This document shows positions 1 through 14,927 of a stretch of 45,243 nucleotides of DNA, one piece after another; position 1 is the stretch's first letter; every line of letters begins with the position of its first letter. Both the position numbers and the translations under genes were made by a program. This DNA is from Clostridia bacterium (GTDB taxonomy: Bacteria > Bacillota > Clostridia > Oscillospirales > CAG-272). The stretch covers positions 1-45,243 of the forward strand of contig JAFQOG010000006.1 in NCBI GenBank assembly GCA_017420755.1. The letters are read 5' to 3'. Under the pieces are notes generated by a model. It was not told the origin of the DNA and did not search any database. It saw nothing but the letters and a program-made list of their open reading frames with translations.

Positions 1-52
1 CTGCAACTGCAACGGTCATACCAACCATTGGGTTGCTACCTGCGCTGATTAA
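1..52 (-). repeat. Displaced 3'-end fragment of a GGGtGRT gene (copy A, cut by window edge)
   Basis: Read on the minus strand this segment encodes LISAGSNPMVGMTVAVA, closely matching the C-terminus of the intact GGGtGRT protein (LIGAGNNPMVGMTVAVA) encoded at 4377-5375. By eye, positions 1-47 differ from copy B (2534-2580) at 3 sites and from the intact gene end (4403-4449) at 4 sites. Two differences change residues (G to S, N to S). The fragment has no upstream coding sequence; similarity stops just beyond position 52. It continues left of the window, so its stop codon and any terminator are not visible. It is best read as a displaced target-gene end or gene relic. Confidence 0.85.
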
Positions 53-77
53 ATCGACAATAATTGGCTGAAAGCAA

Positions 78-106
78 TTGACAGGTTAAATAAAATATAC
101 TATAAT
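78..106 (+). promoter_or_regulatory. Sigma-A promoter for the GH-like/pnuC-like unit
   Basis: TTGACA at 78-83 and TATAAT at 101-106 are separated by exactly 17 bases, a perfect consensus. It lies about 25 bases beyond repeat copy A and reads into the gene at 145, so the unit has its own promoter immediately inside its left boundary. Confidence 0.85.
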
Positions 107-144
107 AAATTTGATATTTGTAGGTTTGTCATAGGAGAATTAAA

Positions 145-1668
145 ATGAAAAAAATCGTATTAAGTCAAGCACATTTGGATAAAAGAAAGCAAAAAAAGCG
201 TTTCGTTTTAAGAGACGATATTTTTTGCACAATATTGCAACAGAAGATGTGCGTGAAGGATTATTTTGATTTTAGTTTTTCATTTCCCGATGAGGTGGAT
301 AAGGTAATCATTGACGGTATGTACTCGGGTGATTGGTATTCCGTGTACGAAAGTGAAATTTTACCGCTTCGCCAAAATCCTATGTTGGCGCGTTTTCGTG
401 ACGCGGGGATAGACATTTTTGATGAATGGATAAAGCATGTTCACGGAAGACAAAAAGAGTGTTGGTTGACATATAGAATTTCAGAGGTTGACGTAGATGA
501 GGATATAAATCCTTTACCGATAAAGGAAGAACACCCCGAATGGTTTATTCCAGCATTTGGATTCACAATGAACAATATGGCTGTGCCGGAAATTCGTGAG
601 CATAAATTAAAGGTAGCCTTAGAAGTGATGAGAAAATACGCTTTTGATGGTTTGGATATTGATTTTGAACGGCACACTCCCATCTTACCAGTTGGCGAGC
701 AATGGGAAAAACGGGAATGCGTAACGGAATTTATAAGAGAATTACGCACGGAGCTTTTAAAAATTGGGAAGGAACAAAACAGAGTTATAATGCTATCCGC
801 ACGAGTACCCGATTGCTTGGACGGATGCCATCAAGATGGTTTAGATGTAGAAAAATGGATAAAAGAAGATTTGGTGGACTGTCTAACCCTTGGCTCACGC
901 TCATTTGATGTTAAAGTGGAAGAGTTTAGGAAGCTTTCAAAGGATGTGCAGCTATATGCGTGCTACGAGCCCTACCATACTGTTGACGGGTACTTTGCTC
1001 CGTCACTTGAAGCACTACGCGGAATTTGGTATTCGCATTTGCAGCGTGGTGCAGATGCGGTAGAATATTTCAACTGGTCAGGGCAAGGGAAAAAGGAAAT
1101 GGTAGCGCATTATGTGAATCTTTATGGGATGGATCCCAAAAAGGAGGATTATGCGCAGTTCGGTAGCGAGGATTTTACGGGTGTAAATGATAAAGAATTT
1201 TTGAAAAAGCAAGATAAAGCTTATGTCATTGATAGGAAGGGTGGCTATCCTTGGGGTATCGGCTACGGTAATTTAAACGCGGATAGACAGCTTCCTTGCG
1301 TAATAGAAAACGACGGACAAGTACGGCTATATGTGGCGGAAAATATAAAGAAAGCGAAAAAGGCAACATTAAAATTGTTGTTTGAAGAGCTTTCACAAAT
1401 TCCCGAAGTGTACTTTAACGGACAAAAATTGTCTTTTTTGTCACAGCCACATCGTGATATGCAGGTGACTGCGGAAAAGATCCCACCTATTTCGGGGCAT
1501 CCAGTAAGCGTACGTCTTGCTTACGGAGAAGATCACAGCAAGAGCTGTACTCTGCTCGAGGCGGATTTGACGGGTATGGAAACCAAAATAGGCTACAACA
1601 TCATAAATGTGTTAACGAAAACACCAGTAAGTCTTGAAAAAGTGGAATTGGAAGTAAAACGAATATGA
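145..1668 (+). CDS. Glycoside-hydrolase-like TIM-barrel protein, cytoplasmic
   Basis: The product is 507 residues, starting at an ATG preceded by AGGAG at 133-137 with good spacing. The core resembles GHL10/GH-like TIM-barrel proteins: residues 168-177 read DGLDIDFERH, an acidic D-x-D-x-E strand end (D171, D173, E175) of the kind that carries catalytic acids, followed by a helix rich in charged residues. A C-terminal beta-rich region of roughly 150 residues may be an accessory domain. No signal peptide or membrane segment is visible, so it should act in the cytoplasm. Its stop overlaps the start of the PnuC-like gene by ATGA, so the two are translationally coupled. Family assignment is by motif and fold impression only; substrate is unknown. 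The gene lies between copies A and B of the GGGtGRT 3' end and is probably horizontally acquired. Confidence 0.6.
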   Translation: MKKIVLSQAHLDKRKQKKRFVLRDDIFCTILQQKMCVKDYFDFSFSFPDEVDKVIIDGMYSGDWYSVYESEILPLRQNPMLARFRDAGIDIFDEWIKHVHGRQKECWLTYRISEVDVDEDINPLPIKEEHPEWFIPAFGFTMNNMAVPEIREHKLKVALEVMRKYAFDGLDIDFERHTPILPVGEQWEKRECVTEFIRELRTELLKIGKEQNRVIMLSARVPDCLDGCHQDGLDVEKWIKEDLVDCLTLGSRSFDVKVEEFRKLSKDVQLYACYEPYHTVDGYFAPSLEALRGIWYSHLQRGADAVEYFNWSGQGKKEMVAHYVNLYGMDPKKEDYAQFGSEDFTGVNDKEFLKKQDKAYVIDRKGGYPWGIGYGNLNADRQLPCVIENDGQVRLYVAENIKKAKKATLKLLFEELSQIPEVYFNGQKLSFLSQPHRDMQVTAEKIPPISGHPVSVRLAYGEDHSKSCTLLEADLTGMETKIGYNIINVLTKTPVSLEKVELEVKRI

Positions 1669-2342
1669 AAATGGGCAACAAGAAAAAAGCGATTTTATTT
1701 GAATACCTACCTATGGCAGTGACGGGGATAATCATACTTGTTTGTGCTATCGTCTTTAAACAAATGTTTATCAAAGTGTTACCATTGTTTTTCTCGCTAC
1801 TTATTATGTTGCTCAATTCTCGGGCAAATCGTATCGGGTTTCTTCTCGGAGCAATCAATAGTTGTATTTACATTATCGGCTACTTGATGGAAGGAGTGTA
1901 CGGCACGGTCGCATCTACTGTCTTTGGCATTGTTATAATGTTAATAACATATTTCAGATGGAAAAGAAACGCTTATGGAAAAGCCACCGTTTTTCGTAGG
2001 TTTAGTGCGCGTGGACGCGTGTTGCTCACTTTGGCTTTGTGCGTGGTGTGGGCAGCGACATCATTTGTTCTCTCGAAAATAGGTGGTACAGCAACAGTAA
2101 TTGACGGCTTGACTATGGTTTTGGGCTTTGCCACAAACATACTAACCATTGTAGCCTATGTGGAAGCTCCATTTTTGAATATTATTAGTGGACTTTGCCA
2201 ATTTGCACTTTGGGTGCAAATCGTATTTATCAACGGAAATTATGCCGCTATAACATATTTAGTGTATAATGTGTATTGTACATATATGATAGTACGCACT
2301 TTTGTTCGTTGGCGCAAGCTCTATAAAGAGCAAAGGTGCTGA
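1665..2342 (+). CDS. PnuC-family nucleoside/vitamin transporter-like membrane protein
   Basis: The product is 225 residues with six to seven hydrophobic segments, for example around residues 13-30, 33-45, 55-90, 115-135, 145-165 and 170-205. The layout and the C-terminal half (an E before an amphipathic loop, then N-G-N-Y and a Y-x-x-Y-x-x-Y-rich last helix ending in R-W-R) resemble PnuC transporters, which move nicotinamide riboside, thiamine or deoxynucleosides by facilitated diffusion with downstream trapping by a kinase. No kinase gene is adjacent. It overlaps the upstream GH-like gene by four bases (ATGA), so both are made from one mRNA and may serve one salvage or uptake route, for example import followed by cleavage of a glycosylated compound. 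The substrate cannot be told from sequence. A hairpin terminator follows at 2389. Confidence 0.7.
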   Translation: MKMGNKKKAILFEYLPMAVTGIIILVCAIVFKQMFIKVLPLFFSLLIMLLNSRANRIGFLLGAINSCIYIIGYLMEGVYGTVASTVFGIVIMLITYFRWKRNAYGKATVFRRFSARGRVLLTLALCVVWAATSFVLSKIGGTATVIDGLTMVLGFATNILTIVAYVEAPFLNIISGLCQFALWVQIVFINGNYAAITYLVYNVYCTYMIVRTFVRWRKLYKEQRC

Positions 2343-2388
2343 CATAATTGTGAAAGCCTCACATTCAAATTTGAATTTAACAAAAAAA

Positions 2389-2436
2389 TGGACACATCAT
2401 CGTGGTTTTACCAAAAATGATGTGTCCAACTTTTTT
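2389..2436. terminator. Bidirectional hairpin terminator, homologous to 3943-3990
   Basis: A 12-bp perfect stem (2389-2400 with 2417-2428, core GACACATCAT) has a 16-base loop and is followed by T6 on the plus strand; A7 before it gives a T-run on the minus strand. The 40-base hairpin aligns without gaps to 3943-3982 with 31 identities. It ends the pnuC-like unit, and on the minus strand it may be the original terminator belonging to GGGtGRT 3'-end copy B. Confidence 0.85.
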
Positions 2437-2507
2437 CATTATTAAATTTTCAGATGTAGATTTTTACAATCTTATCTTGAAGCTAAAAAGTCTTACAAAG
2501 CCTTATA

Positions 2508-2582
2508 TTACTTGCTTGCTTCCTCAACAGCAACTGCAACTGCAACAGTCATACCAACCATTGGGTTGTTACCTGCGCCGAC
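2508..2582 (-). repeat. Displaced 3'-end fragment of a GGGtGRT gene (copy B)
   Basis: On the minus strand this is 24 sense codons plus TAA. The peptide equals the last 24 residues of the intact GGGtGRT protein except the first (V for I). The DNA differs from 4377-4451 at about 8 of 75 positions. Apart from that first codon every change is synonymous, including serine AGC versus TCA, and all four codons of the E-E-A-S tail differ. That pattern points to a diverged homologous gene, not a fresh local duplication. An in-frame TAA lies two codons upstream of the homologous part, so the fragment is not a usable gene. Confidence 0.9.
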
Positions 2583-2602
2583 AACTTAATTCTAAAAATG
2601 TA

Positions 2603-2631
2603 TTTACAAGCAAGTCCAATTGTGATATAAT
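2603..2631 (+). promoter_or_regulatory. Distal promoter for the gpsA-like unit
   Basis: TTTACA at 2603-2608, a 17-base spacer and TATAAT at 2626-2631. It begins about 20 bases beyond repeat copy B, the same arrangement as the promoter next to copy A. Confidence 0.6.
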
Positions 2632-2722
2632 TCAGAGTGCAAAACAAATTTCATAAGTATGTTTACATAATCATATTTTTCCATTGAAACTGTTTGAAAA
2701 ATGTTATTATTTTCTCCACAGA

Positions 2723-2751
2723 TTGAATGCGGAAGGTCTTTTGTGTATAAT
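2723..2751 (+). promoter_or_regulatory. Proximal promoter for the gpsA-like gene
   Basis: TTGAAT at 2723-2728, a 17-base spacer and TATAAT at 2746-2751, 59 bases upstream of the ATG at 2811. The rest of the 468-base gap 2343-2810 holds the terminator, repeat copy B and the distal promoter; I see no further gene in it. Confidence 0.7.
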
Positions 2752-2810
2752 TATTGTATCATACTTTTCGAAGTTTTCAACTCTTATCAATGTTTTTCAC
2801 GGAGGACGAA

Positions 2811-3863
2811 ATGGCAGTCATTACAATTGTTGGTGCGGGCATGATGGGAAGCGCGCTTGCTTTTCCCGCGAGAGAGAATGGGAATGAGGTTCGCTTGGTG
2901 GGAACTCATTTAGACAGAGAAATTATTGAGGAATGCAAGAGGAGTGATAAGCACCCCAAATTCAACAAGGAATTTCCAAAAGGAGTCAAGTATTTTCAGA
3001 TCGAAGAGATTGACGTAGCGATCGAAGGTGCGGATATGATCATCGGCGGTGTATCGAGCTTTGGTGTTGATTGGTTTGGAGAAGTCGTTCTCCCCAAGAT
3101 CCCCGAGAGTGTCCCTGTGCTTACCGTAACCAAGGGACTTATGGATACCGAGGACGGGCAGCTTCTAACATACCCTGAGGTTTGGCGCAGAATGCTTGAG
3201 AAGTCGGGGAAAAAGCTCTCTCTTAATGCGATCGGTGGCCCTTGCACAAGCTATGAACTTGTTGCGCACGATCAAACGGAGGTAGCGTTCTGCGGAGAAG
3301 ATATCGAAATACTTAAGCGGCTTAAGACAATGATGGCTACAGAGTATTACCATATCAGCCTTTCGACCGACGTAGTGGGAATCGAGAGCGCGGTTGCCTT
3401 AAAGAACGGCTATGCTTTGGGAATCGCACTCACCATCGGTCTGAACCAGAAGGAGTTTGGTATTGACAGTGAGCTTCACTTTAATTCTCAAGCCGCGATC
3501 TTCGGTCAGGCGGTCAAAGAAATGTACAAGCTTCTTGACTATCAGGGGGCGGCAACTCTTGAAAATATGAGTGTCGGCTACGGCGATCTATACGTTACGG
3601 TCTACGGCGGCAGAACAAGGCTTGTAGGAATTCTGCTTGGAAGAGGCATGAATATTGATGAAGCGAAGGAAGAACTGAACGGAGTAACCCTGGAATCTCT
3701 TGTTGTTGCCGAACGAGTTGCAAGAGCAATTCGCGTTGCGCATAAACTAGGCAAGCTTGAAATAGGGGCGTTTCCACTTCTTTGTCACGTGGACGATATT
3801 ATCAGCAGAAAGATGAAAGTCAATATTCCTTGGGAAGACTTTACATTCTGCTACAACAAATAA
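2811..3863 (+). CDS. GpsA-like NAD(P)-dependent glycerol-3-phosphate dehydrogenase family protein
   Basis: I chose ATG 2811, with GGAGG at 2801-2805, over an upstream in-frame start that lacks a ribosome binding site; this gives 350 residues, near the usual GpsA length. The N-terminus ITIVGAGMMGSALAF is a Rossmann NAD(P)-binding loop, and ALKNGYALGIALTIGL matches the catalytic-lysine helix of glycerol-3-phosphate dehydrogenases. It would reduce dihydroxyacetone phosphate for phospholipid synthesis, but it is divergent and specificity could differ. Base use differs from its surroundings: two lines counted by hand (3001-3120) give 63 G+C in 120, against 25 in 60 for 541-600. With two private promoters, its own terminator and flanking GGGtGRT end copies, it looks like transferred cargo. 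A housekeeping gpsA may exist elsewhere in the genome. Confidence 0.75.
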   Translation: MAVITIVGAGMMGSALAFPARENGNEVRLVGTHLDREIIEECKRSDKHPKFNKEFPKGVKYFQIEEIDVAIEGADMIIGGVSSFGVDWFGEVVLPKIPESVPVLTVTKGLMDTEDGQLLTYPEVWRRMLEKSGKKLSLNAIGGPCTSYELVAHDQTEVAFCGEDIEILKRLKTMMATEYYHISLSTDVVGIESAVALKNGYALGIALTIGLNQKEFGIDSELHFNSQAAIFGQAVKEMYKLLDYQGAATLENMSVGYGDLYVTVYGGRTRLVGILLGRGMNIDEAKEELNGVTLESLVVAERVARAIRVAHKLGKLEIGAFPLLCHVDDIISRKMKVNIPWEDFTFCYNK

Positions 3864-3942
3864 TGGTTAGGAAAACTAAAATGGGGCATGATTTCATATT
3901 CATTTTCTTCATTGTCAAAAGCCTCCAAATTGTATAAAAATA

Positions 3943-3990
3943 TAGACACATCATTGGGGATTTCTCCAAAATGATGTGTCTTGCTTTTTT
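3943..3990. terminator. Hairpin terminator of the gpsA-like unit, homologous to 2389-2436
   Basis: An 11-bp stem (3944-3954 with 3971-3981, core GACACATCAT) is extended by a second helix in the loop and followed by a T-run at 3985-3990. The 40 bases 3943-3982 align without gaps to 2389-2428 with 31 identities, so it belongs to the repeated architecture and is not a chance terminator. Confidence 0.85.
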
Positions 3991-4004
3991 CTTTAAATAT
4001 AATA

Positions 4005-4083
4005 GGAGGAGCAATTCCTTGCAGGACAGCAACCCTTTTGTCGCAAGCGACATTTCCCCTCGCAGGGGAATCACCTCCCCTAC
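4005..4083. repeat. REP-like palindromic element, long form
   Basis: It starts GGAGGAGCAA and ends CCTCCCCTAC, like the short form at 4297-4320. Inside are two perfect hairpins: TGTCGC-AA-GCGACA at 4039-4052 and TTCCCC-TCGCA-GGGGAA at about 4053-4069. The GGAGG and CCTCC ends can pair as an outer stem. Elements with such ends are frequent in gut Clostridia genomes; no transposase is present. Confidence 0.6.
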
Positions 4084-4105
4084 AAATAATCAAACCTCAG
4101 CGTGA

Positions 4106-4132
4106 AAAAGTGCCACTCAAGGTGGCACTTTT
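4106..4132. terminator. 11-bp hairpin, terminator-like
   Basis: AAAAGTGCCAC (4106-4116) pairs perfectly with GTGGCACTTTT (4122-4132) around a 5-base loop. There is little T-tract beyond the stem on either strand, so it may be a terminator relic or part of the repeat cluster. Confidence 0.5.
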
Positions 4133-4233
4133 AGCGTTTATTAAAGAGGCTTCAGGGCGGAGGAAAAATGCGCGAATAGAGTGAGAGGCGTACTTGCGTA
4201 CGTCGGAGCGATAGTCGCGTATAGAAATCACAT

Positions 4234-4268
4234 AAAAAAAAGAAAAGCACATATCACTGTGCTTTTCT
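4234..4268 (-). terminator. Intrinsic terminator of the NifU-like/GGGtGRT operon
   Basis: AGAAAAGCACA (4241-4251) pairs perfectly with 4258-4268 around a 6-base loop. On the minus strand the stem is followed by about eight T residues (A-run 4234-4241), a strong intrinsic terminator about 110 bases past the GGGtGRT stop codon. Confidence 0.75.
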
Positions 4269-4296
4269 ACCTTAGAATTTCTTCGTTAAATAGAAC

Positions 4297-4320
4297 GGGA
4301 GGAGCAAGCCCCTCCCCTAC
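4297..4320. repeat. REP-like palindromic element, short form
   Basis: GGGAGG (4297-4302) pairs with CCTCCC (4311-4316) across a short loop, and the element ends CCTCCCCTAC like the long form at 4005-4083. It is probably an internally deleted relative. Confidence 0.6.
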
Positions 4321-4376
4321 TATATTAATTCGTTACTATAAGTGTGATTTCGGTTTTACCCGTATCTGACAGCCTC

Positions 4377-5375
4377 TTACTTTGAAGCCTCTTCAACAGC
4401 AACTGCAACAGCAACAGTCATACCAACCATTGGGTTGTTACCTGCGCCGATAAGACCCATCATTTCTACGTGAGCAGGAACGGATGAAGAACCAGCGAAT
4501 TGAGCATCGCCGTGCATTCTACCCATTGTATCAGTCATACCGTAGGAAGCAGGACCAGCAGCCATGTTATCTGGGTGAAGTGTACGACCTGTACCACCAC
4601 CTGATGCAACTGAGAAGTAGTTAACTCCGTTTTCGTTACACCATTTCTTATATGTACCGGCAACTGGGTGTTGGAATCTTGTTGGGTTAGTTGAGTTACC
4701 TGTGATAGATACACCAACGTTTTCAAGTCTCATAATTGCAACGCCTTCCGGAACGCTGTCAGAGCCATAGCACTTAACGTTAGCTCTTGGGCCGTTTGAG
4801 TAAGGTGTTTCAGAGATTACTTTAACTTCTTCAGCATATGGGTCAAACTCTGTTTCAACATATGTAAAGCCGTTGATTCTTGAAATAATCATAGCAGCAT
4901 CCTTGCCAAGACCGTTAAGGATAACGCGAAGTGGCTTTACTCTAACCTTGTTTGCGTTAAGAGCAATTTTAATTGCGCCCTCTGCTGCTGCGAATGATTC
5001 GTGACCTGCGAGGAAGCAGAAGCACTCTGTTTCTTCGGAAAGAAGCATTTTGCCGAGGTTACCGTGGCCAAGACCAACCTTTCTGTTCTCAGCAACTGAA
5101 CCAGGGATACAGAAGGCTTGAAGACCAATACCGATAGCGGCAGCAGCGTCAGCAGCTCTGACGCAGCCCTTCTTAATTGCGATAGCTGCGCCTACTGTGT
5201 AAGCCCAAACTGCGTTTTCAAAGCAGATAGGTTGAGTTTCTCTTACGATTTTATCGCAGTCGATACCCTTAGCGAGTGTAATTTCCTTACACTCCTCGAT
5301 AGAATTGATACCATATTCTTTAAGAGCCGCAAGAATTTTAGCTTCTCTGCGCTCGTATCCTTCAAATAATGCCAT
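4377..5375 (-). CDS. GGGtGRT family protein (function unknown)
   Basis: The product is 332 residues, starting at an ATG with AAGGAGG just upstream. It carries the name-giving motif in VASGGGTGRTLHPDN (about residues 255-270), then glycine/histidine/methionine-rich segments (SYGMTDTMGRMHGDAQF). These proteins are widespread in anaerobic Firmicutes, nearly always beside a NifU-like Fe-S scaffold gene, as here with a 14-base gap. No biochemical activity is established to my knowledge; the glycine-rich loop suggests binding of a nucleotide or phosphate. Its last 24 codons are the target of the 3'-end repeats at 1-52 and 2508-2582. Its alanine/valine-repeat tail (VAVAVAVEEASK) is kept intact. Confidence 0.85.
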   Translation of the reverse strand: MALFEGYERREAKILAALKEYGINSIEECKEITLAKGIDCDKIVRETQPICFENAVWAYTVGAAIAIKKGCVRAADAAAAIGIGLQAFCIPGSVAENRKVGLGHGNLGKMLLSEETECFCFLAGHESFAAAEGAIKIALNANKVRVKPLRVILNGLGKDAAMIISRINGFTYVETEFDPYAEEVKVISETPYSNGPRANVKCYGSDSVPEGVAIMRLENVGVSITGNSTNPTRFQHPVAGTYKKWCNENGVNYFSVASGGGTGRTLHPDNMAAGPASYGMTDTMGRMHGDAQFAGSSSVPAHVEMMGLIGAGNNPMVGMTVAVAVAVEEASK

Positions 5376-6291: not shown

Positions 6292-6987
6292 ATGCGTCTT
6301 GATAAGCTTCTTTCCGAGCTTGGCAAGGCCACCAGAAGTGAGGGTGGTAAGCTAATTCGCTCGGGCAAGGTTACTGTTAATGGCGAGGTTATAAAAAAGC
6401 CAGACCATAAAATTGACCCTCTAAAGGACGAGGTTTCTCTTCTTGGTGAGGTGCTCACCTACAAAAAATTTACCTACATTATGTTAAATAAGCCCGAGGG
6501 GTACGTCTCTGCAACTGATGACGAAAGGGAGAAAACCGTTTTAGATTTAGTCAGTGACGAGGATAGACGAAAAGGGCTTTTCCCCTGCGGACGGCTCGAC
6601 AAAAACACATTGGGTCTTGTGATTTTGACAAATGATGGTGACGGTGCACATAAGGTGCTTTCCCCTAAGCATCACGTTTCAAAGGTGTATAAGTTTGAAT
6701 CTAAATTCCCTTTGTCGGAGAATGATATTAAGGCACTTGAAAGTGGTGTTGACATTGGTGGCTATTTAACCAAGCCCTGCAAAATTAAATTATATAGTAA
6801 TTTAACGAGTGGCGAAATCACCTTGACTGAGGGCAAATATCATCAAATTAAGCGTATGCTTGAGGCGGTTAATAATAAAATTACTTATCTTGAAAGAATC
6901 AGCTTTGGCGGTATTGTGCTCGACCCTACTCTTAAAAGAGGCGAATGGCGATACCTAACAAGCGAGGAGGAGGTTATATTCAAATGA
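6292..6987 (+). CDS. rsuA: RsuA-family 16S rRNA pseudouridine synthase
   Basis: I chose ATG 6292, with GGGAGG at 6280-6285; an upstream in-frame ATG at 6268 lacks a ribosome binding site. The 231-residue product begins with an S4 RNA-binding domain (MRLDKLLSELGKATRSEG, about residues 1-60) and then the pseudouridine synthase fold. CGRLDKNTLGLVILTNDG holds the catalytic aspartate of the G-R-L-D motif. The length and S4-plus-catalytic layout match RsuA/RluB/RluE enzymes, which convert uridine to pseudouridine in rRNA; RsuA (16S position 516) is the likeliest but the other subfamilies cannot be excluded. The stop overlaps the first PHP gene by ATGA. Confidence 0.85.
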   Translation: MRLDKLLSELGKATRSEGGKLIRSGKVTVNGEVIKKPDHKIDPLKDEVSLLGEVLTYKKFTYIMLNKPEGYVSATDDEREKTVLDLVSDEDRRKGLFPCGRLDKNTLGLVILTNDGDGAHKVLSPKHHVSKVYKFESKFPLSENDIKALESGVDIGGYLTKPCKIKLYSNLTSGEITLTEGKYHQIKRMLEAVNNKITYLERISFGGIVLDPTLKRGEWRYLTSEEEVIFK

Positions 6988-8033
6988 AAAAATTTCTTTT
7001 ACCTGACGGTGTGAATTGGTATCGTGCCAATATGCACTGCCACACAACCGTTTCCGACGGTCACTACTCTCCTGCGGAAATCAAGGAAGCTTACAAAAAT
7101 ATGGGCTACTCTATTGTAGCATATACCGACCATGAAATCATTAAAACCCACAACGATTTGACAGATGACGAGTTTTTGGCAATCACCTCTTCGGAATTTT
7201 CTATCAACGATTCAAAGGCTTGCTTTGAAATTCCCGACGGAAAATATATGGATGGATGGAGAAGCAAAAAGGTAATTCACTTGGGCATTTACTCTAAAGA
7301 CCCGAACAACACCTTCCATCCAGCAACTGATGAAGGCACCTTTAACTATTGGAAAAGTCAGGGCAAGGATATGGCAGGCGCAACGTGTGACGGATATCAA
7401 AGAGTTTACACCGTTGAGAGTATTAACGAAACCATTAAGCGTTTAAATGAAGCGGGCTTTTTAGTTGCACTTAACCATCCAAACTGGTCACTAAACGATA
7501 TGAACGACTATCTTAATTTCGAGGGGCTTTGGTCACTTGAAATTTTGAACTACGCAACTGAGCGCATCTCCGGTGCTGAATACTGCCCCTATATTTACGA
7601 CCATATGATAAGAAATGGAAAGAACAGAAATCTATTCTGCAATATGGGTGACGATAACCACAATCGTGGTGGCTCATTTGACCATTCCTTTGGTGGCTCA
7701 ACAATAATTGGTGCTAAGGAGCTTGAATACGGTCAAGTAATGGAAGCACTTGAAAAGGGCGAATTCTACTGTGCAAGTGGTAAAAATCCACCAAAAATCA
7801 ACGCTCTTTATGTTGAAGATAATATACTGAAAATAGACTGCTCCCCAGCGACTGATATTTTTGTAACCGGCATGGGAAGAAACTTCCGTTATGCAAATAC
7901 AAACGGTGAGGAAATCACCCACGCAGAGTTTAGACTTGATAAGCAGGACATTTTGTTCCGTGTAACTGTTCGCGATAAATATAACAACAATGCACATACA
8001 CATTTTTATAAGGTTAGTGACCTTATAGACTAA
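6984..8033 (+). CDS. PHP-domain metal-dependent hydrolase, tandem paralogue 1
   Basis: The 349-residue start at 6984 is fixed by the ATGA overlap with rsuA, GAGGAGG upstream and alignment with the next two paralogues (all start MKK...NWYRAN). PHP phosphoesterase metal ligands are visible: H18 and H20 (MHCH), D25 (SDG), D49-H50 (YTDH), E71 (SSEF), NHP near residue 160 and GDDNHN near 220. PHP proteins hydrolyse phosphate esters with a di- or trinuclear metal centre (for example histidinol phosphatase, or the TrpH/RNase AM nucleases). The C-terminal 90 residues, GKNPPKINALYVEDNILKI onward, look like a beta domain. No signal peptide. The substrate is unknown; the operon with an rRNA modifier and Tex may hint at RNA or nucleotide metabolism, which is inference. 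Confidence 0.8.
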   Translation: MKKFLLPDGVNWYRANMHCHTTVSDGHYSPAEIKEAYKNMGYSIVAYTDHEIIKTHNDLTDDEFLAITSSEFSINDSKACFEIPDGKYMDGWRSKKVIHLGIYSKDPNNTFHPATDEGTFNYWKSQGKDMAGATCDGYQRVYTVESINETIKRLNEAGFLVALNHPNWSLNDMNDYLNFEGLWSLEILNYATERISGAEYCPYIYDHMIRNGKNRNLFCNMGDDNHNRGGSFDHSFGGSTIIGAKELEYGQVMEALEKGEFYCASGKNPPKINALYVEDNILKIDCSPATDIFVTGMGRNFRYANTNGEEITHAEFRLDKQDILFRVTVRDKYNNNAHTHFYKVSDLID

Positions 8034-8042
8034 GGAAGGCTG

Positions 8043-9098
8043 ATGAAAAAATATATTATTTCTCCAAAGCTTAATTGGTATCGCGCCAATATGCATTGTC
8101 ACACTACCATATCCGACGGGCACTTTTCCCCAGAGGAAATTAAAGAAGTGTACAAGAAAATGGGCTACTCTATTGTGGCATATAGCGACCATGAGCTAAT
8201 TCGCGATCATTCCGATTTGAATGATGATGGCTTTTTGGCAATCACAGCGAGTGAGTTTTCAATTGACGACACATCCCCATCTTTTGCTTTGCCGAATGGT
8301 GAAAGCACCGAGGAATGGTTCGCGCGCAAGGTTATTCACATAGGAGTTTATGCGAAAAATCCACACAACATTTTTCACCCAGCAACCGACAACACCCTTT
8401 TTGATATGTGGTGGCGCGCGCAGGGGCGTGATATTGGCAAAATATCGTGTGACAACTACCATAGGGAGTACACCATCGATAGCATTAACGAAATGGTTAG
8501 AAGGCTTAACGAAAATGGATTTTTAGTCACCTTAAACCATCCAAGCTGGTCGCTTAATGATATGACGGACTACCTTAATATAGATGGGCTTTGGGCACTT
8601 GAAATTTTAAACTACGCAACTGAAAGGTTGACAGGAAGCGAATATTGTCCATATATATACGACCACATGGTAAGACAGGGTATGTATAATCTCTACTGTG
8701 TTATGGGCGATGACAATCACAACACAGATGGCAGCTTACGCGACTCCTTTGGTGGCTCTACATTTATAGGCGCTGAGGGACTTGAATACAGCCAAGTAAT
8801 AGAAGCTCTTGAAAATGGTAATTTCTATTGCGCAAGTGGCAAAAATCCACCAAAAATCAATGCTCTTTATGTGGAAGATAATATCCTCAAAATAGATTGC
8901 TCACCTGCAACGGATATTTTTGTCACAGGTCTTGGCAGAAATCACTGCCACTATCCAAGTGAGGATGAGGAAATTACTCACGCTGAATTCAAGCTTGAGC
9001 CAAAGGATATAATGTTCCGCGTTACTGTAAGAGATAAATACGGAAATAATGCCCATACGCATTATTACAAAGTTGAAGATTATTTAACAAGGAGCTAA
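8043..9098 (+). CDS. PHP-domain metal-dependent hydrolase, tandem paralogue 2
   Basis: The 351-residue product begins 9 bases after the previous stop, with AAGGAAGG as ribosome binding site. It is the closest relative of paralogue 1: the C-terminal run from GKNPPKINALYVEDN through DIFVTG is identical over 30 residues, and the DNA there differs mostly at third positions. All the PHP ligands are kept (MHCH, SDG, YSDHE, ASEFS, NHPSW, GDDNHN). A two-residue difference lies in the NTLFDMWW loop near residue 120. It is likely a duplicate that kept activity, since the metal site is fully conserved; differences concentrate in loops that could shape the substrate pocket. Confidence 0.8.
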   Translation: MKKYIISPKLNWYRANMHCHTTISDGHFSPEEIKEVYKKMGYSIVAYSDHELIRDHSDLNDDGFLAITASEFSIDDTSPSFALPNGESTEEWFARKVIHIGVYAKNPHNIFHPATDNTLFDMWWRAQGRDIGKISCDNYHREYTIDSINEMVRRLNENGFLVTLNHPSWSLNDMTDYLNIDGLWALEILNYATERLTGSEYCPYIYDHMVRQGMYNLYCVMGDDNHNTDGSLRDSFGGSTFIGAEGLEYSQVIEALENGNFYCASGKNPPKINALYVEDNILKIDCSPATDIFVTGLGRNHCHYPSEDEEITHAEFKLEPKDIMFRVTVRDKYGNNAHTHYYKVEDYLTRS

Positions 9099-9102
9099 AT
9101 AT

Positions 9103-10149
9103 ATGAAAAAGTTTCTAATATCACCAGAATTAAATTGGTATAGAGCCAACTTTCACTGCCACACAAAGCATTCTGATGGTGCTTTAACGCCAGAACAGGT
9201 TAAGGAGGCATACAAAAACCACGGCTACTCTATTGTGGCCTACTCAGACCACGATGTGCTTCTTGACCACTCCGACCTAAACGACGAGGGCTTCTTGGCA
9301 CTGACCAGCTCCGAGTATGCAATAAACGACTCAAAGGCTTCATTTCCAAAGCTATTTGACATTGATACAAGCGATTGGGTTCGCAAAAAGTGTGTGCACC
9401 TAAACATATTCTCAAAGGACCCACACAACACCTTTATGCCAGCGACAGCTATTGAGCAAAACTGGATTTTAAAGGAGCGATATCCTGACACCAAGTGCGA
9501 CGGATTTATTCGTGAATTCACCAAAGAAAACATAAATGAGATTATAAAGCGCTGTAACGATGCAGGATTTTTGGTACAGCTCAACCATCCATATTGGTCA
9601 CTCAACGAGCGTGAAGACTATATAAATATGGAAGGGCTATGGGGTCTTGAAATATTGAACTATGCAACTGAGCTTGAAACAGGAAGCGAATATTGCCCAT
9701 ATATTTACGATGATATGGTTAGAAATGGTATGTACAACCTCGTTTGCACAATGGGTGACGACAATCACAACCACGCAGGACTTCGTGAGTCCTTTGGTGG
9801 CTCAACCTTCATTGGCGCTAAGGAATTAAAGTACGATCAAATCATTGAGGCTATGGAAAATGGTAATATTTACTGTGCATCAGGCAGAGATAACCCACCA
9901 CAGTTTAAGGCACTTTATGTTGAGGACAACATGCTCAAAATTGAGTGCACACCAGTTGAAAGCATAATTGTGAATGGCTACTGCCGTTCAGATAGACACA
10001 CAACTCACGATGACGACTCCCCAGGACTAACCCACGACGAGTTTTGGCTACGTGAAAGTGACGTATATTTCCGTGTTACAATCCGTGACAAGTTTGGAAA
10101 TAGCGCACATACACATACTTATTTCGTAAAAGATTATATTGAAAAATAA
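9103..10149 (+). CDS. PHP-domain metal-dependent hydrolase, tandem paralogue 3
   Basis: The 348-residue product starts four bases after paralogue 2, using AAGGAG that overlaps the end of that gene, so translation is probably coupled. Metal-site motifs are present (FHCHTKHSDG, YSDHD, SSEYA, NHPYW, GDDNHNHAG). It is the most diverged of the three: M17 becomes F, the E after YSDH becomes D, and the loops around residues 75-130 and the tail (VNGYCRSDRHTTHDD) differ. This fits an older duplication with altered substrate preference. It is followed after 38 bases by tex with no terminator between, so it is probably in the same operon. Confidence 0.8.
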   Translation: MKKFLISPELNWYRANFHCHTKHSDGALTPEQVKEAYKNHGYSIVAYSDHDVLLDHSDLNDEGFLALTSSEYAINDSKASFPKLFDIDTSDWVRKKCVHLNIFSKDPHNTFMPATAIEQNWILKERYPDTKCDGFIREFTKENINEIIKRCNDAGFLVQLNHPYWSLNEREDYINMEGLWGLEILNYATELETGSEYCPYIYDDMVRNGMYNLVCTMGDDNHNHAGLRESFGGSTFIGAKELKYDQIIEAMENGNIYCASGRDNPPQFKALYVEDNMLKIECTPVESIIVNGYCRSDRHTTHDDDSPGLTHDEFWLRESDVYFRVTIRDKFGNSAHTHTYFVKDYIEK

Positions 10150-10187
10150 ATTTATACCCAAAAGATGCAAAAACGGAGAAACAAAAA

Positions 10188-12350
10188 ATGAACATTATTG
10201 AAACACTCGCAAAAGAATTTTCACTTAAGGTAAGTCAGGTTGAAGCAACCGTTGGACTTATCGACGACGGCAACACCATCCCTTTTATCGCACGTTATAG
10301 AAAAGAAGTTACAGGCTCACTTGATGATACTGTTTTACGTAATCTTGATGACCGTCTTAAATACCTAAGAAACTTAGAGACAAGAAAGGCTGAGGTTGCC
10401 TCTCTTATCGAAGGTCAGGGCAAATTAACACCTGAAATTACAGAGGCTCTTAACAAGGCACAAACAATTACTGAGGTTGAGGATATTTACCGTCCATACA
10501 AGCCAAAGAGAGAGACACGTGCTTCCCTTGCAAGAAAGAAGGGGCTTGAGCCACTTGCTAATCTCATTATGGAGCAAAGAGATTCCTACTCTCCTTCAAT
10601 CGACGAGGTAGCTAAGGACTTTATTACAACCGAAAACGAGGATAAAAAGCTTCACGTTAAAACTGCTGAGGATGCAATCAACGGCGCAAAGGACATCATC
10701 GCTGAGGATATTTCCGACAATGCTGATTTCCGTAAGGCCATAAGAGCATTGACAACTGACCACGGCATGATTGTTTCTAAGCAGGCAAAGGATGAGGACT
10801 CAGTTTACAGCTCATATTATGACTATAACGAAGCAGTTAAAAAGATTCCAGGACATAGAGTTTTGGCTATCAACAGAGGCGAAAAGGAAGAATTCTTAAA
10901 GGTTAGTGTTCAAATCGACTCCGAAATCATACTTAACTATTTATATTCACAATTAATTACAAATTCATCAAGTCCAGCAAAGACTTATATTGCCGAGGCT
11001 ATAACTGACGGATATGACCGTCTTATTGCTCATTCAGTTGAAAGAGAGATTAGAACCTCTCTATTTGACAATGCAAGCGAGGGTGCAATTAAGCTATTCT
11101 CTGACAATTTAAAGAACCTTCTTATGGGCGCACCACTCAAGGGCAAAACTGTTCTTGGCTACGACCCTGGTTATAGAACAGGCTGCAAGCTTGCGGTTGT
11201 TGATAAAACAGGTAAGGTTATTGATACTGCAGTTATTTTCCCAACAAAGCCACGCGAGGACATTGAGGGCTCAAAGGCTATTGTAACAAGACTTATCAAG
11301 AAATATGGTGTTGATGTTGTTGCTATCGGTAACGGTACAGCATCTAAGGAAAGTGAAATCTTCATTGCTGGCGTTTTAAAGGATATCGCAGGCGACAAAA
11401 AATATATTATGGTAAGCGAGGCCGGTGCTTCAGTTTACTCTGCTTCCAAGCTTGGCGCTGAGGAATTCCCTGACTTTGACGTTACACAGCGTTCAGCTGT
11501 TTCTATTGCAAGACGTCTACAAGACCCACTTGCTGAGCTTGTTAAGATTGACCCTAAATCTATTGGTGTTGGTCAATATCAGCACGATATGAAGCAAGCA
11601 AGACTTGACGAGGCGCTTGGTGGCGTTGTTGAGGACTGCGTTAACAAGATTGGCGTTGACGTAAATACAGCCTCATATTCTCTACTTTCCTACATTTCTG
11701 GTATCAATATGACAAGTGCTAAAAACATTGTTAAATACCGTGAGGAAAACGGCGAATTTACTAAGAGAAACGAGCTTCTCAAGGTGCCAAAGATTGGTGC
11801 AAAGGCTTACGAGCAATGCGCAGGCTTCCTTCGTGTGCCAGATTCAAAGGAAATTCTTGATAACACAGGTGTCCATCCGGAATCCTACGAGGCTGCAAAG
11901 AAGCTTCTTGGAAAATTTGAATATACACTTGAATCCGTTGGCTCAGGTCTTTCCGACCTACGTCAGAAATGTGCAAAATATGGCACAAAGAAATTAGCTG
12001 AGGAGCTTGAAATCGGTGAGCCTACGCTTCTTGACATCATCGGTGAGCTTGAAAAGCCAGGTCGTGACGTGCGTGATTCACTTCCACTTCCTATCCTTCG
12101 CGACGACGTTCTTGGCATGGAGGACTTAAAGGAAGGTATGGTTATGACAGGTACTGTTCGTAACGTTATTGACTTCGGTGCTTTTGTTGACATTGGCGTT
12201 CACCAGGATGGTCTTGTTCACATCTCAGAAATTTCTGAAAAATACATCAAGCACCCAAGTGAGGCGCTTAGTGTTGGTGATATTGTAACCGTTAAAATTA
12301 AGGGCGTTGACTTAAACAAAAAGCGCATCAGCCTAACAATGAAAATGTAA
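10188..12350 (+). CDS. tex: Tex family RNA-binding/transcription accessory protein
   Basis: The 720-residue product has the full Tex layout: an N-terminal helical part starting IIETLAKEFSLKVSQVEATV with the DDGNTIPFIARYRKEVTG signature (about residues 27-44), a YqgF/RNase H-like domain (GYDPGYRTGCKLAVVDKTGK, near residue 325), tandem helix-hairpin-helix motifs (SGINMTSAKNIVKYREENG and VPKIGAKAYEQCAGFLRV, about 500-550), and a C-terminal S1 domain (GTVRNVIDFGAFVDIGVHQ, about 645-715). Tex binds nucleic acid and is tied to transcription and ribosome-related functions; its precise role is unsettled. The length is normal and no domain is missing. Confidence 0.95.
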   Translation: MNIIETLAKEFSLKVSQVEATVGLIDDGNTIPFIARYRKEVTGSLDDTVLRNLDDRLKYLRNLETRKAEVASLIEGQGKLTPEITEALNKAQTITEVEDIYRPYKPKRETRASLARKKGLEPLANLIMEQRDSYSPSIDEVAKDFITTENEDKKLHVKTAEDAINGAKDIIAEDISDNADFRKAIRALTTDHGMIVSKQAKDEDSVYSSYYDYNEAVKKIPGHRVLAINRGEKEEFLKVSVQIDSEIILNYLYSQLITNSSSPAKTYIAEAITDGYDRLIAHSVEREIRTSLFDNASEGAIKLFSDNLKNLLMGAPLKGKTVLGYDPGYRTGCKLAVVDKTGKVIDTAVIFPTKPREDIEGSKAIVTRLIKKYGVDVVAIGNGTASKESEIFIAGVLKDIAGDKKYIMVSEAGASVYSASKLGAEEFPDFDVTQRSAVSIARRLQDPLAELVKIDPKSIGVGQYQHDMKQARLDEALGGVVEDCVNKIGVDVNTASYSLLSYISGINMTSAKNIVKYREENGEFTKRNELLKVPKIGAKAYEQCAGFLRVPDSKEILDNTGVHPESYEAAKKLLGKFEYTLESVGSGLSDLRQKCAKYGTKKLAEELEIGEPTLLDIIGELEKPGRDVRDSLPLPILRDDVLGMEDLKEGMVMTGTVRNVIDFGAFVDIGVHQDGLVHISEISEKYIKHPSEALSVGDIVTVKIKGVDLNKKRISLTMKM

Positions 12351-12391
12351 TATCTAATTTTGGATAATTTGAACAAAACAAAAGTCATATT

Positions 12392-12440
12392 TTTGTGCAA
12401 CTTTAAAGATATTTAGCTATTTTTGTTAGAATTGCACAAA
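12392..12440. promoter_or_regulatory. 9-bp inverted repeat upstream of the ugpC-like promoter
   Basis: TTTGTGCAA (12392-12400) and TTGCACAAA (12432-12440) form a perfect dyad separated by 31 bases, about 30 bases upstream of the -35. It could be a looped operator pair or a large weak hairpin; no binding protein is identified. Confidence 0.4.
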
Positions 12441-12471
12441 TGCGACTCGAAAATTTTGTTAAAAAAAGATA

Positions 12472-12500
12472 TTTAATTTTTAAATGGTTTCTGCTATAAT
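12472..12500 (+). promoter_or_regulatory. Extended -10 promoter of the ugpC-like gene
   Basis: TGCTATAAT (12492-12500) is a consensus extended -10; the -35 position (12472-12477, TTTAAT) is weak, as is common with extended -10 promoters. It implies a leader of about 70 bases. Confidence 0.65.
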
Positions 12501-12526
12501 ATTTAATGTAAAATAAGGGATTTGTG

Positions 12527-12544
12527 TCAAAAAGCACTTTTTGA
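12527..12544 (+). promoter_or_regulatory. Leader hairpin upstream of the ugpC-like gene
   Basis: TCAAAAA (12527-12533) pairs perfectly with TTTTTGA (12538-12544) around GCAC. It lies in the predicted mRNA leader, between promoter and ribosome binding site. Confidence 0.4.
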
Positions 12545-12577
12545 TGCAAAAATCGCACATCTAAGGAGAATTTTAAA

Positions 12578-13690
12578 ATGGCAAGTTTGTCTTTGAAGCA
12601 CATCTACAAGAAATACCCCGGTGGCGTTACAGCCGTTTCTGATTTCTGTCTTGAAATTAAAGATAAGGAATTCATTATTTTCGTTGGTCCTTCAGGATGC
12701 GGCAAATCTACAACTCTTCGTATGATTGCAGGTCTTGAGGAAATCACCGAGGGTGAATTATATATTGGCGATAAGCTTATGAACGATATCGCACCTAAGG
12801 ACAGAGATATTGCGATGGTTTTCCAAAACTACGCTCTTTATCCTCATATGACAGTTTACGAAAACATGGCATTTGGCCTTAAGCTTCGTAAAACACCAAA
12901 GGAGGAAATCAAGCGCCGTGTTGAAGAGGCTGCTGAAATCCTCGGCATCACTCACCTTCTCGACAGAAAGCCAAAGGCTATGTCAGGTGGTCAGAAGCAG
13001 CGTGTTGCGCTCGGTCGTGCTATCGTTAGAAATCCTAAGGTATTCTTGCTTGACGAGCCTCTTTCAAACCTTGACGCTAAGCTCCGTGCAACAATGAGAA
13101 CTGAGCTTACAAAGATACATAACCGTGTTGGTACAACATTCGTATACGTAACTCACGACCAGGTTGAGGCTATGACAATGGCTACCCGTATCGTTGTTAT
13201 GAAGGATGGCTTTATCCAACAGGTTGACTCTCCACAAACACTTTACGATAAGCCAGTTAATATGTTCGTTGCAGGCTTTATCGGTACACCTCAAATGAAC
13301 TTTATCAATGCTACACTTGAAAAGAAGGATGACGGAACATACATCTGCTTCGAGGGCAATTCATTAAGACTTCCAGACGAAAAGGCTTCAAACCCAGCGC
13401 TCCAAGAGTATATTGGCAAAGAGGTTGTTGCCGGTATTCGTCCAGAGCTTATCCATGACGAGCCAATCTTCCTTGAAACAATGAAGGAAAACGTTATCGA
13501 CGTTAACGTTGAAATCACCGAGCTTATGGGTGCTGAAATTTACCTTTACATCAATATTGGCGAGCAAAACGCTATTGCTAAGGTTTCATCCCGTTCACAA
13601 GCCCGCGCAGGTGACAAGATTCAAGTTGCTATTGAAGCCGGTAGAATTCACCTCTTCGATAAAGACACACAAAGATACATCATTCACTAA
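12578..13690 (+). CDS. ugpC: UgpC/MsmK-family carbohydrate ABC transporter ATPase (orphan)
   Basis: The 370-residue product is a CUT1-type ATPase: Walker A GPSGCGKST (about 38-46), Q-loop VFQNYALYPHMT, signature MSGGQKQRVALGRA (about 134-147), Walker B VFLLDEPLSNLD, H-loop VTHDQ, and a C-terminal OB/TOBE regulatory domain (AGIRPELI near 288). These ATPases power import of sugars or glycerol-3-phosphate. No permease or binding protein is nearby and the gene is a single transcription unit with promoter and terminator. That fits the multi-system ATPases MsmK/MsmX of Firmicutes that serve several sugar importers. Separating ugpC from msmK or malK by sequence is not safe. Confidence 0.9.
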   Translation: MASLSLKHIYKKYPGGVTAVSDFCLEIKDKEFIIFVGPSGCGKSTTLRMIAGLEEITEGELYIGDKLMNDIAPKDRDIAMVFQNYALYPHMTVYENMAFGLKLRKTPKEEIKRRVEEAAEILGITHLLDRKPKAMSGGQKQRVALGRAIVRNPKVFLLDEPLSNLDAKLRATMRTELTKIHNRVGTTFVYVTHDQVEAMTMATRIVVMKDGFIQQVDSPQTLYDKPVNMFVAGFIGTPQMNFINATLEKKDDGTYICFEGNSLRLPDEKASNPALQEYIGKEVVAGIRPELIHDEPIFLETMKENVIDVNVEITELMGAEIYLYINIGEQNAIAKVSSRSQARAGDKIQVAIEAGRIHLFDKDTQRYIIH

Positions 13691-13699
13691 GATATTAAA

Positions 13700-13727
13700 A
13701 GACAGGCAAAACGCCTGTCTTTTTTTA
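13700..13727 (+). terminator. Intrinsic terminator of the ugpC-like gene
   Basis: AGACAGGC (13700-13707) pairs with GCCTGTCT (13713-13720), followed by T7. Confidence 0.9.
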
Positions 13728-13735
13728 ATTATCTA

Positions 13736-13763
13736 TTGACTTTTAAATTATATTTGATATAAT
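13736..13763 (+). promoter_or_regulatory. Promoter of the Gfo/Idh/MocA gene
   Basis: TTGACT (13736-13741), 16-base spacer, TATAAT (13758-13763), 37 bases before the ATG at 13801. Confidence 0.75.
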
Positions 13764-13800
13764 AGTGATAATGTAATTTTTCTAAAATGCGAGGTACAAA

Positions 13801-14850: not shown

Positions 14851-14851
14851 G

Positions 14852-14876
14852 AAAGGGCTACATTCGTAGCCTTTTT
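14852..14876 (+). terminator. Intrinsic terminator of the Gfo/Idh/MocA gene
   Basis: A roughly 10-bp stem (14852-14861 with 14866-14875, one G-T pair) ends in a T-run. Confidence 0.8.
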
Positions 14877-14887
14877 CTTTTACACAT

Positions 14888-14918
14888 AAAAAGCCACTTC
14901 AAAATTGAGTGGCTTTTT
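14888..14918 (-). terminator. Intrinsic terminator of the discoidin-domain gene
   Basis: AAAAAGCCACT (14888-14898) pairs perfectly with AGTGGCTTTTT (14908-14918). It works in both directions between convergent genes. Confidence 0.85.
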
Positions 14919-14927
14919 ATTATTTAA

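What the first reader, a model, noticed from the sequence alone, without database searches (positions are those of the whole stretch)
1..4451. Cassette-like array built on repeated copies of the 3' end of the GGGtGRT gene
Three same-direction copies of the last ~24 codons of the GGGtGRT gene lie at 1-52, 2508-2582 and 4377-4451; only the last is attached to a whole gene. Between them sit two transferred-looking units on the opposite strand (GH-like plus PnuC-like; GpsA-like). Copy B keeps the peptide but differs by synonymous codons, including Ser AGC versus TCA, which argues for import from a diverged homologue. This is what 3'-end-targeted integration with tandem accretion would leave: each arrival restores the reading frame with its own end and pushes the older end outward. 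No recombinase is visible, so the units would be mobilised in trans, or are relics. A tandem-paralogue deletion model is the main alternative.
Basis: partly seen in the sequence, partly recalled or inferred. Interest (0 to 1): 0.78.

Follow-up and report, generated by a model that had tools for sequence, protein, structure and literature searches.

The report
Mobile gene cassettes stacked behind GGGtGRT
The repeated gene ends look like landing marks left where small mobile DNA units stack up behind one conserved gene in gut Clostridia, and relatives carry a matching integrase gene at the same spot, so this is a real and little-described gene-swapping hotspot.

Summary
In detail: same-direction copies of the GGGtGRT gene end lie at 1-49 (cut by the contig end), 2508-2584 and 4377-4453; only the last belongs to a whole gene. 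Relatives show a mobile-element hotspot. The two window units recur here in congeners with different neighbours, and are more alike between species (90-99% DNA identity) than the adjoining NifU-GGGtGRT genes (86-87%). A Xer-like tyrosine integrase, not found in the own genome or 28 congeners, sits directly behind the gene or its copied tail in 47 of 55 close loci. An occupied site (9 kb element between two identical 98-nt tails) and a same-genus empty site were found. No tandem full-length genes turned up in 145 genomes. Best reading: tandem accretion of integrase-less (cis-mobilizable-like) units at a new target gene. Mobility was not tested; what moves the units in this genus is unknown. Integron-like cassette exchange at the inverted repeat remains open.

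The parts
4377..5375 (-). GGGtGRT gene (PF14057), target gene; its 3' end is the attachment site
   Evidence: Pfam 6.4e-191
4377..4453 (-). gene-borne tail, reference copy (last codons to stop)
   Evidence: repeat family D5
3982..4376 (.). spacer s1 between stop codon and first inverted repeat; looks native to this lineage
   Evidence: 94-97% identical in G001, not alignable to G002
3944..3981 (.). inverted repeat H1 (core 3946-3979); junction of the GpsA unit lies inside it
   Evidence: G000/G001/G002 alignments
2811..3863 (+). cargo 1: GpsA-like dehydrogenase
   Evidence: PF07479/PF01210; unit 99.0% over 914 nt in G002
2508..2584 (-). tail copy B
2390..2427 (.). inverted repeat H2 (core 2392-2425); left boundary of the PnuC-GH unit
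   Evidence: alignment of four genomes
1665..2342 (+). cargo 2b: PnuC-like transporter
   Evidence: PF04973 1.9e-18; TIGR01528 55.7 bits, cut-off 42.45
145..1668 (+). cargo 2a: GH18/GHL10-like protein
   Evidence: PF00704 2.5e-5, below cut-off
1..49 (-). tail copy A, truncated by the contig end; right boundary of the PnuC-GH unit
   Evidence: six-genome alignment

Best explanation
The 3' end of GGGtGRT is the attachment site of a family of small integrative elements. Full elements carry a Xer-like tyrosine integrase next to the gene end, preceded by an inverted repeat H, plus variable genes (about 3-9 kb in all), and end in a copy of the last 23-30 codons of the gene. The window shows an integrase-less stack of such units: gene tail - spacer - H - GpsA - tail - spacer - H - PnuC/GH - tail - native flank. 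Shown by comparison: the site, the integrase family at this site, occupied and empty sites, horizontal spread of both window units, and recurrent boundaries (tail start, stop codon, H). Inferred: that the integrase does the recombination, that integrase-less units are moved in trans or in cis by such elements (in the way of cis-mobilizable elements), and that exchanges happen within the tail-spacer-H joint.
For: (1) PnuC-GH unit at the GGGtGRT end or beside a tail in congeners; GpsA unit behind the gene in G002; 8 of 145 genomes hold PnuC-GH, and of the same 145 only the own genome and G002 hold a close GpsA unit (16 others have 66-73% matches). (2) Transfer: GpsA unit 99.0% (914 nt) and PnuC-GH 95.3% identical to G002 against 87.0% for NifU+GGGtGRT and 75-77% for two flanks; PnuC-GH 93.4% (G003) and 90.0% (G021) against 87.3% and 86.2%. 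(3) Integrase at this gene end: four close hits in 96 genomes, all at GGGtGRT, 47 of 55 loci with integrase identity >=55% have the gene or its tail within 700 nt upstream on the same strand, 6 of the 8 misses have the gene 1.0-6.3 kb upstream, and 50 of 55 have H just before the integrase. (4) Filled versus empty: G391 has two identical 98-nt tails around a 9 kb element; same-genus G483 has GGGtGRT directly followed by the genes that lie beyond the element in G391. (5) Tail starts cluster: codons 303-304 in 26 and 308-310 in 13 of 44 isolated tails. (6) Integrase residues R162, K187, H253, R256, H279, Y288 (catalytic roles recalled) are invariant in nine copies.
Against: No integrase of this family in the own genome or in 28 congeners at E <= 1e-20, so mobility of the window units rests on comparison only. 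The junctions differ: stop codon for integrase elements, H for the GpsA unit, tail for the far end of PnuC-GH; a single crossover point was not pinned down. No relaxase or phage structural family is among the 25 of 41 Pfam families printed for 42 element proteins, so how elements leave a cell is open. Longer gene pieces exist: from codon 264 in G439, codon 279 and codons 127-214 in G242, and about 72 codons in G436 (not fetched). The genomes are drafts, most of those titled being metagenome assemblies.
Confidence: 0.85

Rival explanations
1. Integron-like cassette system: the inverted repeat H is a true recombination site and single-gene cassettes are inserted or swapped at H by the integrase acting in trans, leaving the host's own tail and spacer on both sides.
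For: G000 and G001 agree from gene to H (spacer 94-97%) and then share nothing alignable; G000 and G002 share nothing alignable between tail and H and 99% after it, and H1 looks like a hybrid of the two. PnuC-GH and pho/pst units also begin at H in several genomes. H is nearly confined to this locus: 19 of 21 exact places in 96 genomes lie at a GGGtGRT array or beside a unit known from one (my placing), and its outer pairs are intact in 48 of 48 integrase-adjacent copies. In G334/G384, with a 49% identical integrase, the dyad before the integrase has a different sequence. Cargo is cassette-like: barnase-barstar, TIR, MscS, VanZ.
Against: H is absent from the empty sites seen (G011, G023, G483), so a first insertion would need the tail. 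In integrase elements the spacer travels with the integrase, which puts their junction at the stop codon, not at H. H has A/T tracts on both sides and could simply be a two-way transcription terminator. No integrase found in this genus.
Confidence: 0.3
2. The units spread by ordinary homologous recombination between donor and host copies of the joint and flanks, with no site-specific step for the integrase-less units.
For: Joints are repeats of some 150-500 nt; tails look mosaic in some loci (L243, L188); no integrase found in the genus.
Against: Boundaries fall on short recurrent points (H, 34 nt; tail start in two zones, 39 of 44) although longer homology lies next door; GpsA is 99% identical right up to H and unrelated beyond.
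Confidence: 0.25
3. Tandem duplication of the whole GGGtGRT gene followed by deletions that left the tails.
For: A few longer gene pieces: G439 from codon 264, G242 from codon 279 plus an internal piece, G436 about 72 codons.
Against: 0 of 145 genomes have two full-length genes on one contig; the one genome with two full copies (G331) has them on different contigs. Tail starts are not spread along the gene. A same-genus empty site exists.
Confidence: 0.03

Closest known systems
Dehalococcoides ssrA genomic islands (PMC3146451; passages read)
   Same: Tandem islands behind one conserved gene, each closed by a copy of the gene's 3' end; 15 islands without an integration module, which the authors suggest might be cis-mobilizable elements.
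   Different: There: serine recombinase, tmRNA gene, 20-bp repeat. Here: Xer-like tyrosine integrase, protein gene, repeat of about 70-98 nt, window units of about 1.9 and 2.5 kb with one or two genes, plus a dyad H.
Streptococcal IMEs with tyrosine integrases in 3' ends of rpsI, rplL, rpmE, rpmG, guaA, and CIME accretion (PMC5357655, PMC5704250; passages read)
   Same: Small elements, tyrosine integrase, 3' end of a conserved gene, tandem accretion, decay to integrase-less elements that keep attachment sites.
   Different: GGGtGRT is not among the targets in the passages read; no relaxase family seen here among the families printed.
Integrons (features recalled; integron integrase model TIGR02249 matches P0001 at 48 bits, cut-off 265)
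   Same: Arrays of small gene units, cargo in one orientation in the window, an inverted repeat in each joint of the window.
   Different: No integron-type integrase; the tails are coding sequence of a host gene; the integrase sits inside the mobile units. I did not search for an attI.

Membership tests
Integrative element with tyrosine integrase at a gene 3' end (IME/ICE-like) | Tyrosine integrase adjacent to attachment site | tested here: met
   Met in relatives: 47 of 55 loci directly and 6 more with the gene upstream on the same contig. Not met in the own genome: none found
Integrative element with tyrosine integrase at a gene 3' end (IME/ICE-like) | Direct repeat of the gene end at both borders, empty site in relatives | tested here: met
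   98/98 nt identical tails in G391, empty site in G483
Integrative element with tyrosine integrase at a gene 3' end (IME/ICE-like) | Relaxase or other transfer gene (needed for IME or ICE) | tested here: inconclusive
   None among the 25 of 41 families printed for 42 proteins chosen from ten loci; 16 families not shown
Cis-mobilizable element (CIME) | No integrase or transfer gene but both attachment ends kept | tested here: met
   Window units: cargo only, a tail on each side, the left one cut by the contig end; no integrase of this family in the genome
Cis-mobilizable element (CIME) | Moves when an element with a matching integrase is present | not testable with these tools
   needs a culture
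Integron | IntI-type integrase | tested here: not met
   P0001 scores 48.1 bits on TIGR02249 (cut-off 265); best model NF040815 131.5 bits, also below its cut-off of 220
Integron | Hairpin site in each cassette at which exchange happens | tested here: inconclusive
   H in both window units; junctions inside or at H for three units, but not for integrase elements
Decayed tandem paralogues | Full-length tandem copies in relatives | tested here: not met
   0 of 145 genomes

The most novel reading that the evidence does not exclude
A new integron-like kind of cassette platform: the joint 'GGGtGRT tail - spacer - dyad H' acts as a two-site exchange point, autonomous elements bring the Xer-like integrase, and small cassettes (metabolic genes, barnase-barstar, TIR) are swapped between species at H while each host keeps its own joint.
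Probability: 0.25. Interest if true: 0.82.

Novelty: new variant of a known kind. Interest (0 to 1): 0.62.

Why it matters
It names an insertion hotspot and an integrase clade that my four literature searches did not turn up in print, in uncultured, largely ruminant-gut Clostridia. It gives a simple marker (the GGGtGRT stop codon) to mine for mobile cargo such as restriction-modification, TIR and toxin-inhibitor pairs, and a clean comparative case for how integrase-less gene units spread.

Tried and rejected
Tandem-paralogue decay: rejected. H as the native terminator of GGGtGRT: rejected as native, because the empty sites seen lack it; a terminator role within elements is still possible. A single crossover point in the tail at GGCGCAG: tried by eye, not supported, since tail segments do not follow the integrase. 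Similarity between H and the codon-303 core (ATGATGKGTC): seen by eye, including a matching change in G384/G334, but not tested against chance; left as a lead. Unpaired bases at the second outer position of H as a sign of hybrid sites: 0 of 48 integrase-adjacent against 5 of 43 others, Fisher p = 0.02; decay explains it as well.

Rows dropped: one chance hit (L126:395) was dropped by me (43 to 42); tails within 90 nt of a locus end and pieces scoring above 80 bits were left out by the script; one search then found two such longer pieces that reach the gene end and do not touch a locus edge (G439, G242), which I added (44 in all: 26 at codons 303-304, 13 at 308-310, 5 elsewhere). In one search only loci with more than 400 nt of the gene were used (37; one search had 47). 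Compared loci are related to each other, so the p-values are optimistic. One search sorts H copies by an integrase hit within 130 nt; some 'other' copies may belong to cut or very diverged integrases. 19 of 21 is my placing from contig and position, with two neighbourhoods read.

Literature: GGGtGRT is named in 9 papers (listing only), none with a title on mobile elements; one search gave 0 papers, searches gave listings with no paper on this site in title or abstract start; three papers were read in passages.
Full report
Observation. The window is the whole of contig C53 of a 1.8 Mb draft genome. Three same-direction copies of the GGGtGRT gene end are present at 1-49, 2508-2584 and 4377-4453; only the last is part of a whole gene. 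Between them, on the other strand, lie PnuC plus a GH18-like gene, and a GpsA-like gene. The left copy is cut by the contig end. Contig C5 of the same genome ends in a partial tail next to gpm-, lipase- and deacetylase-like genes (gene names are my reading). The same PnuC-GH unit, tail and gpm-like gene lie on one contig in G002, so C5 very probably continues C53, with the assembly broken in the repeat.

In 96 genomes the exact pattern was found at 21 places. By contig and position I place 19 at a GGGtGRT array or beside a unit known from one. Two are elsewhere: G077:C30, read directly, and G035:C67, a contig without a tail hit.

Distribution. The 77-nt tail hit 44 of 96 genomes, several with two or three same-strand copies a few kb apart. 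Content differs. GGGtGRT is followed by PnuC-GH in G003, G021 and G008, by GpsA in G002, and by pho/pst-like genes in G009 and G026. It is followed by a barnase-barstar pair in G031, an MscS-like channel in G439, a VanZ-like gene in G019 and a TIR protein in G359. G011 and G023 look empty: the gene is followed by gpm- and lipase-like genes, with no H or second tail in the 9 kb mapped.

Horizontal spread. Against G002 the GpsA unit is 99.0% identical over 914 nt and the PnuC-GH unit 95.3%, while NifU plus GGGtGRT is 87.0%, the other flank 77% and gpm 75%. PnuC-GH against G003 and G021 is 93.4% and 90.0%, with 87.3% and 86.2% for NifU plus GGGtGRT. PnuC-GH is in 8 of 145 genomes, all of one genus. 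A close GpsA unit is in two of 145, the own genome and G002, where the contig ends inside it; 16 others have 66-73% matches that I take for ordinary gpsA genes.

The integrase. Right behind GGGtGRT in G090 lies a 318-residue tyrosine recombinase (PF00589, 3.4e-30). Its best NCBIfam model is XerA/integron-integrase-like, below cut-off. In 96 genomes it had four close hits, all at the GGGtGRT end, three of them truncated or broken, plus one distant hit (25% identity); none in the own genome or 28 congeners. In 394 genomes of the order 26 had a hit at E <= 1e-25. The scan of named genomes gave 70 loci and the viral collection one. Of the 55 loci with identity of 55% or more, 54 have titles; 35 of these name a ruminant gut, the other 19 do not name the source. 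Of the 55, 47 have the gene or a tail within 700 nt upstream on the same strand. Of the 8 misses, 6 have the gene 1.0-6.3 kb upstream, one starts at a contig end and one has a partial tail 2.2 kb upstream. H lies just before the integrase in 50 of 55. Of the 16 more distant loci, 14 have neither; L232 has both, and L240 has H with a gene end far upstream at its contig start. Some distant relatives sit at other gene ends: L221 near what looks like rpmE with a 91-nt repeat, L214/L215 behind a YhbY-like gene with 57- and 52-nt repeats (gene names recalled from the protein ends).

Filled and empty. In G391 the element runs from GGGtGRT through spacer, H and integrase to a second tail about 9 kb away; the two tails are identical over 98 nt, and prmA-like and dnaJ-like genes follow. 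In G483 of the same genus GGGtGRT is followed directly by the prmA-like gene (names are my reading).

Where the junctions lie. Over 37 integrase loci the spacer between stop codon and H follows the integrase (rho 0.41) and not the gene body (-0.01); the three tail segments have rho 0.01, 0.08 and -0.06 with the integrase. In L194 and L218 the spacer is near identical from the stop codon on although the gene tails differ up to the last codon. So integrase elements join at about the stop codon and the gene keeps its own end. The far end recurs too: of 44 isolated tails 26 begin at codon 303-304, 13 at codon 308-310 (six of them copies of the PnuC-GH unit) and 5 elsewhere. For the GpsA unit the junction lies inside H: G000 and G001 agree up to H and part after it; G000 and G002 cannot be aligned between tail and H and are near identical after it. 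PnuC-GH begins at H in G000, G003 and G021 (G008 has a reduced H) and ends in the tail in six genomes. Exchanges thus fall within one joint, tail-spacer-H, but not at a single point.

H. Integrase-adjacent copies pair at the first two outer positions in 48 of 48 and at the third in 46 of 48; other copies in 42, 38 and 24 of 43. Among integrase-adjacent copies the outer bases change together, so the dyad seems selected; A/T tracts on both sides fit a two-way terminator, and a protein-binding dyad fits as well.

Against tandem paralogues. PF14057 was found in 109 of 145 genomes; none has two full-length copies on one contig; G331 has two on different contigs. Longer pieces exist in G439, G242 and G436.

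Cargo of integrase elements. Ten stretches from integrase to the next tail measure about 3.3-9.1 kb; four of them have a cut or partial integrase. One carries a type III restriction-modification pair, others serine resolvases, WYL regulators and a SprT-like protein. No relaxase or phage structural family is among the 25 of 41 families printed for 42 chosen proteins. In the phage and plasmid collections only distant relatives were found (4 and 3 records, 25-31% identity).

Verdict. A real mobile-element hotspot: tandem accretion of integrase-less units at the end of GGGtGRT, of the kind described for streptococcal CIMEs and Dehalococcoides ssrA islands (passages), with a new target gene, a distinct integrase clade, very small units and a conserved dyad inside which at least one unit was exchanged. 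Whether the dyad makes it an integron-like exchange system is open.

Noticed in passing
window 6945-10149: Three neighbouring genes of about 350 aa; the first two are 74-82% alike in DNA over most of their length; G002 has a set of three there. They look like PHP-type metal hydrolases (recalled).
   Followed up: no
L040 (G003) 8603-16000; L048, L170, L056: A whole pho/pst-like operon sits behind the GGGtGRT end in four congeners; in G003 it has a tail on each side, so even a 7 kb core-type operon may travel here.
   Followed up: partly
L221, L214, L215, L216: Distant relatives of the integrase have 50-91 nt direct repeats, hairpins nearby and, in three, a gene end just upstream (rpmE-like, YhbY-like): perhaps a wider family of such elements.
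   Followed up: partly
L229, L238, L239 and the PnuC-GH unit (window 50-70): A second class of unit end, GTCGATTTAATC or GTCGATTATC just before the tail, found in the PnuC-GH unit and in more distant loci.
   Followed up: no
L043 (G040) 11356-15208: A proB-proA-proC-like operon lies between a truncated integrase and an H copy at the GGGtGRT end.
   Followed up: no
window 3982-4376: Part of spacer s1 (query 4300-4378) is repeated elsewhere in the genome (contigs C25, C45 and others).
   Followed up: no
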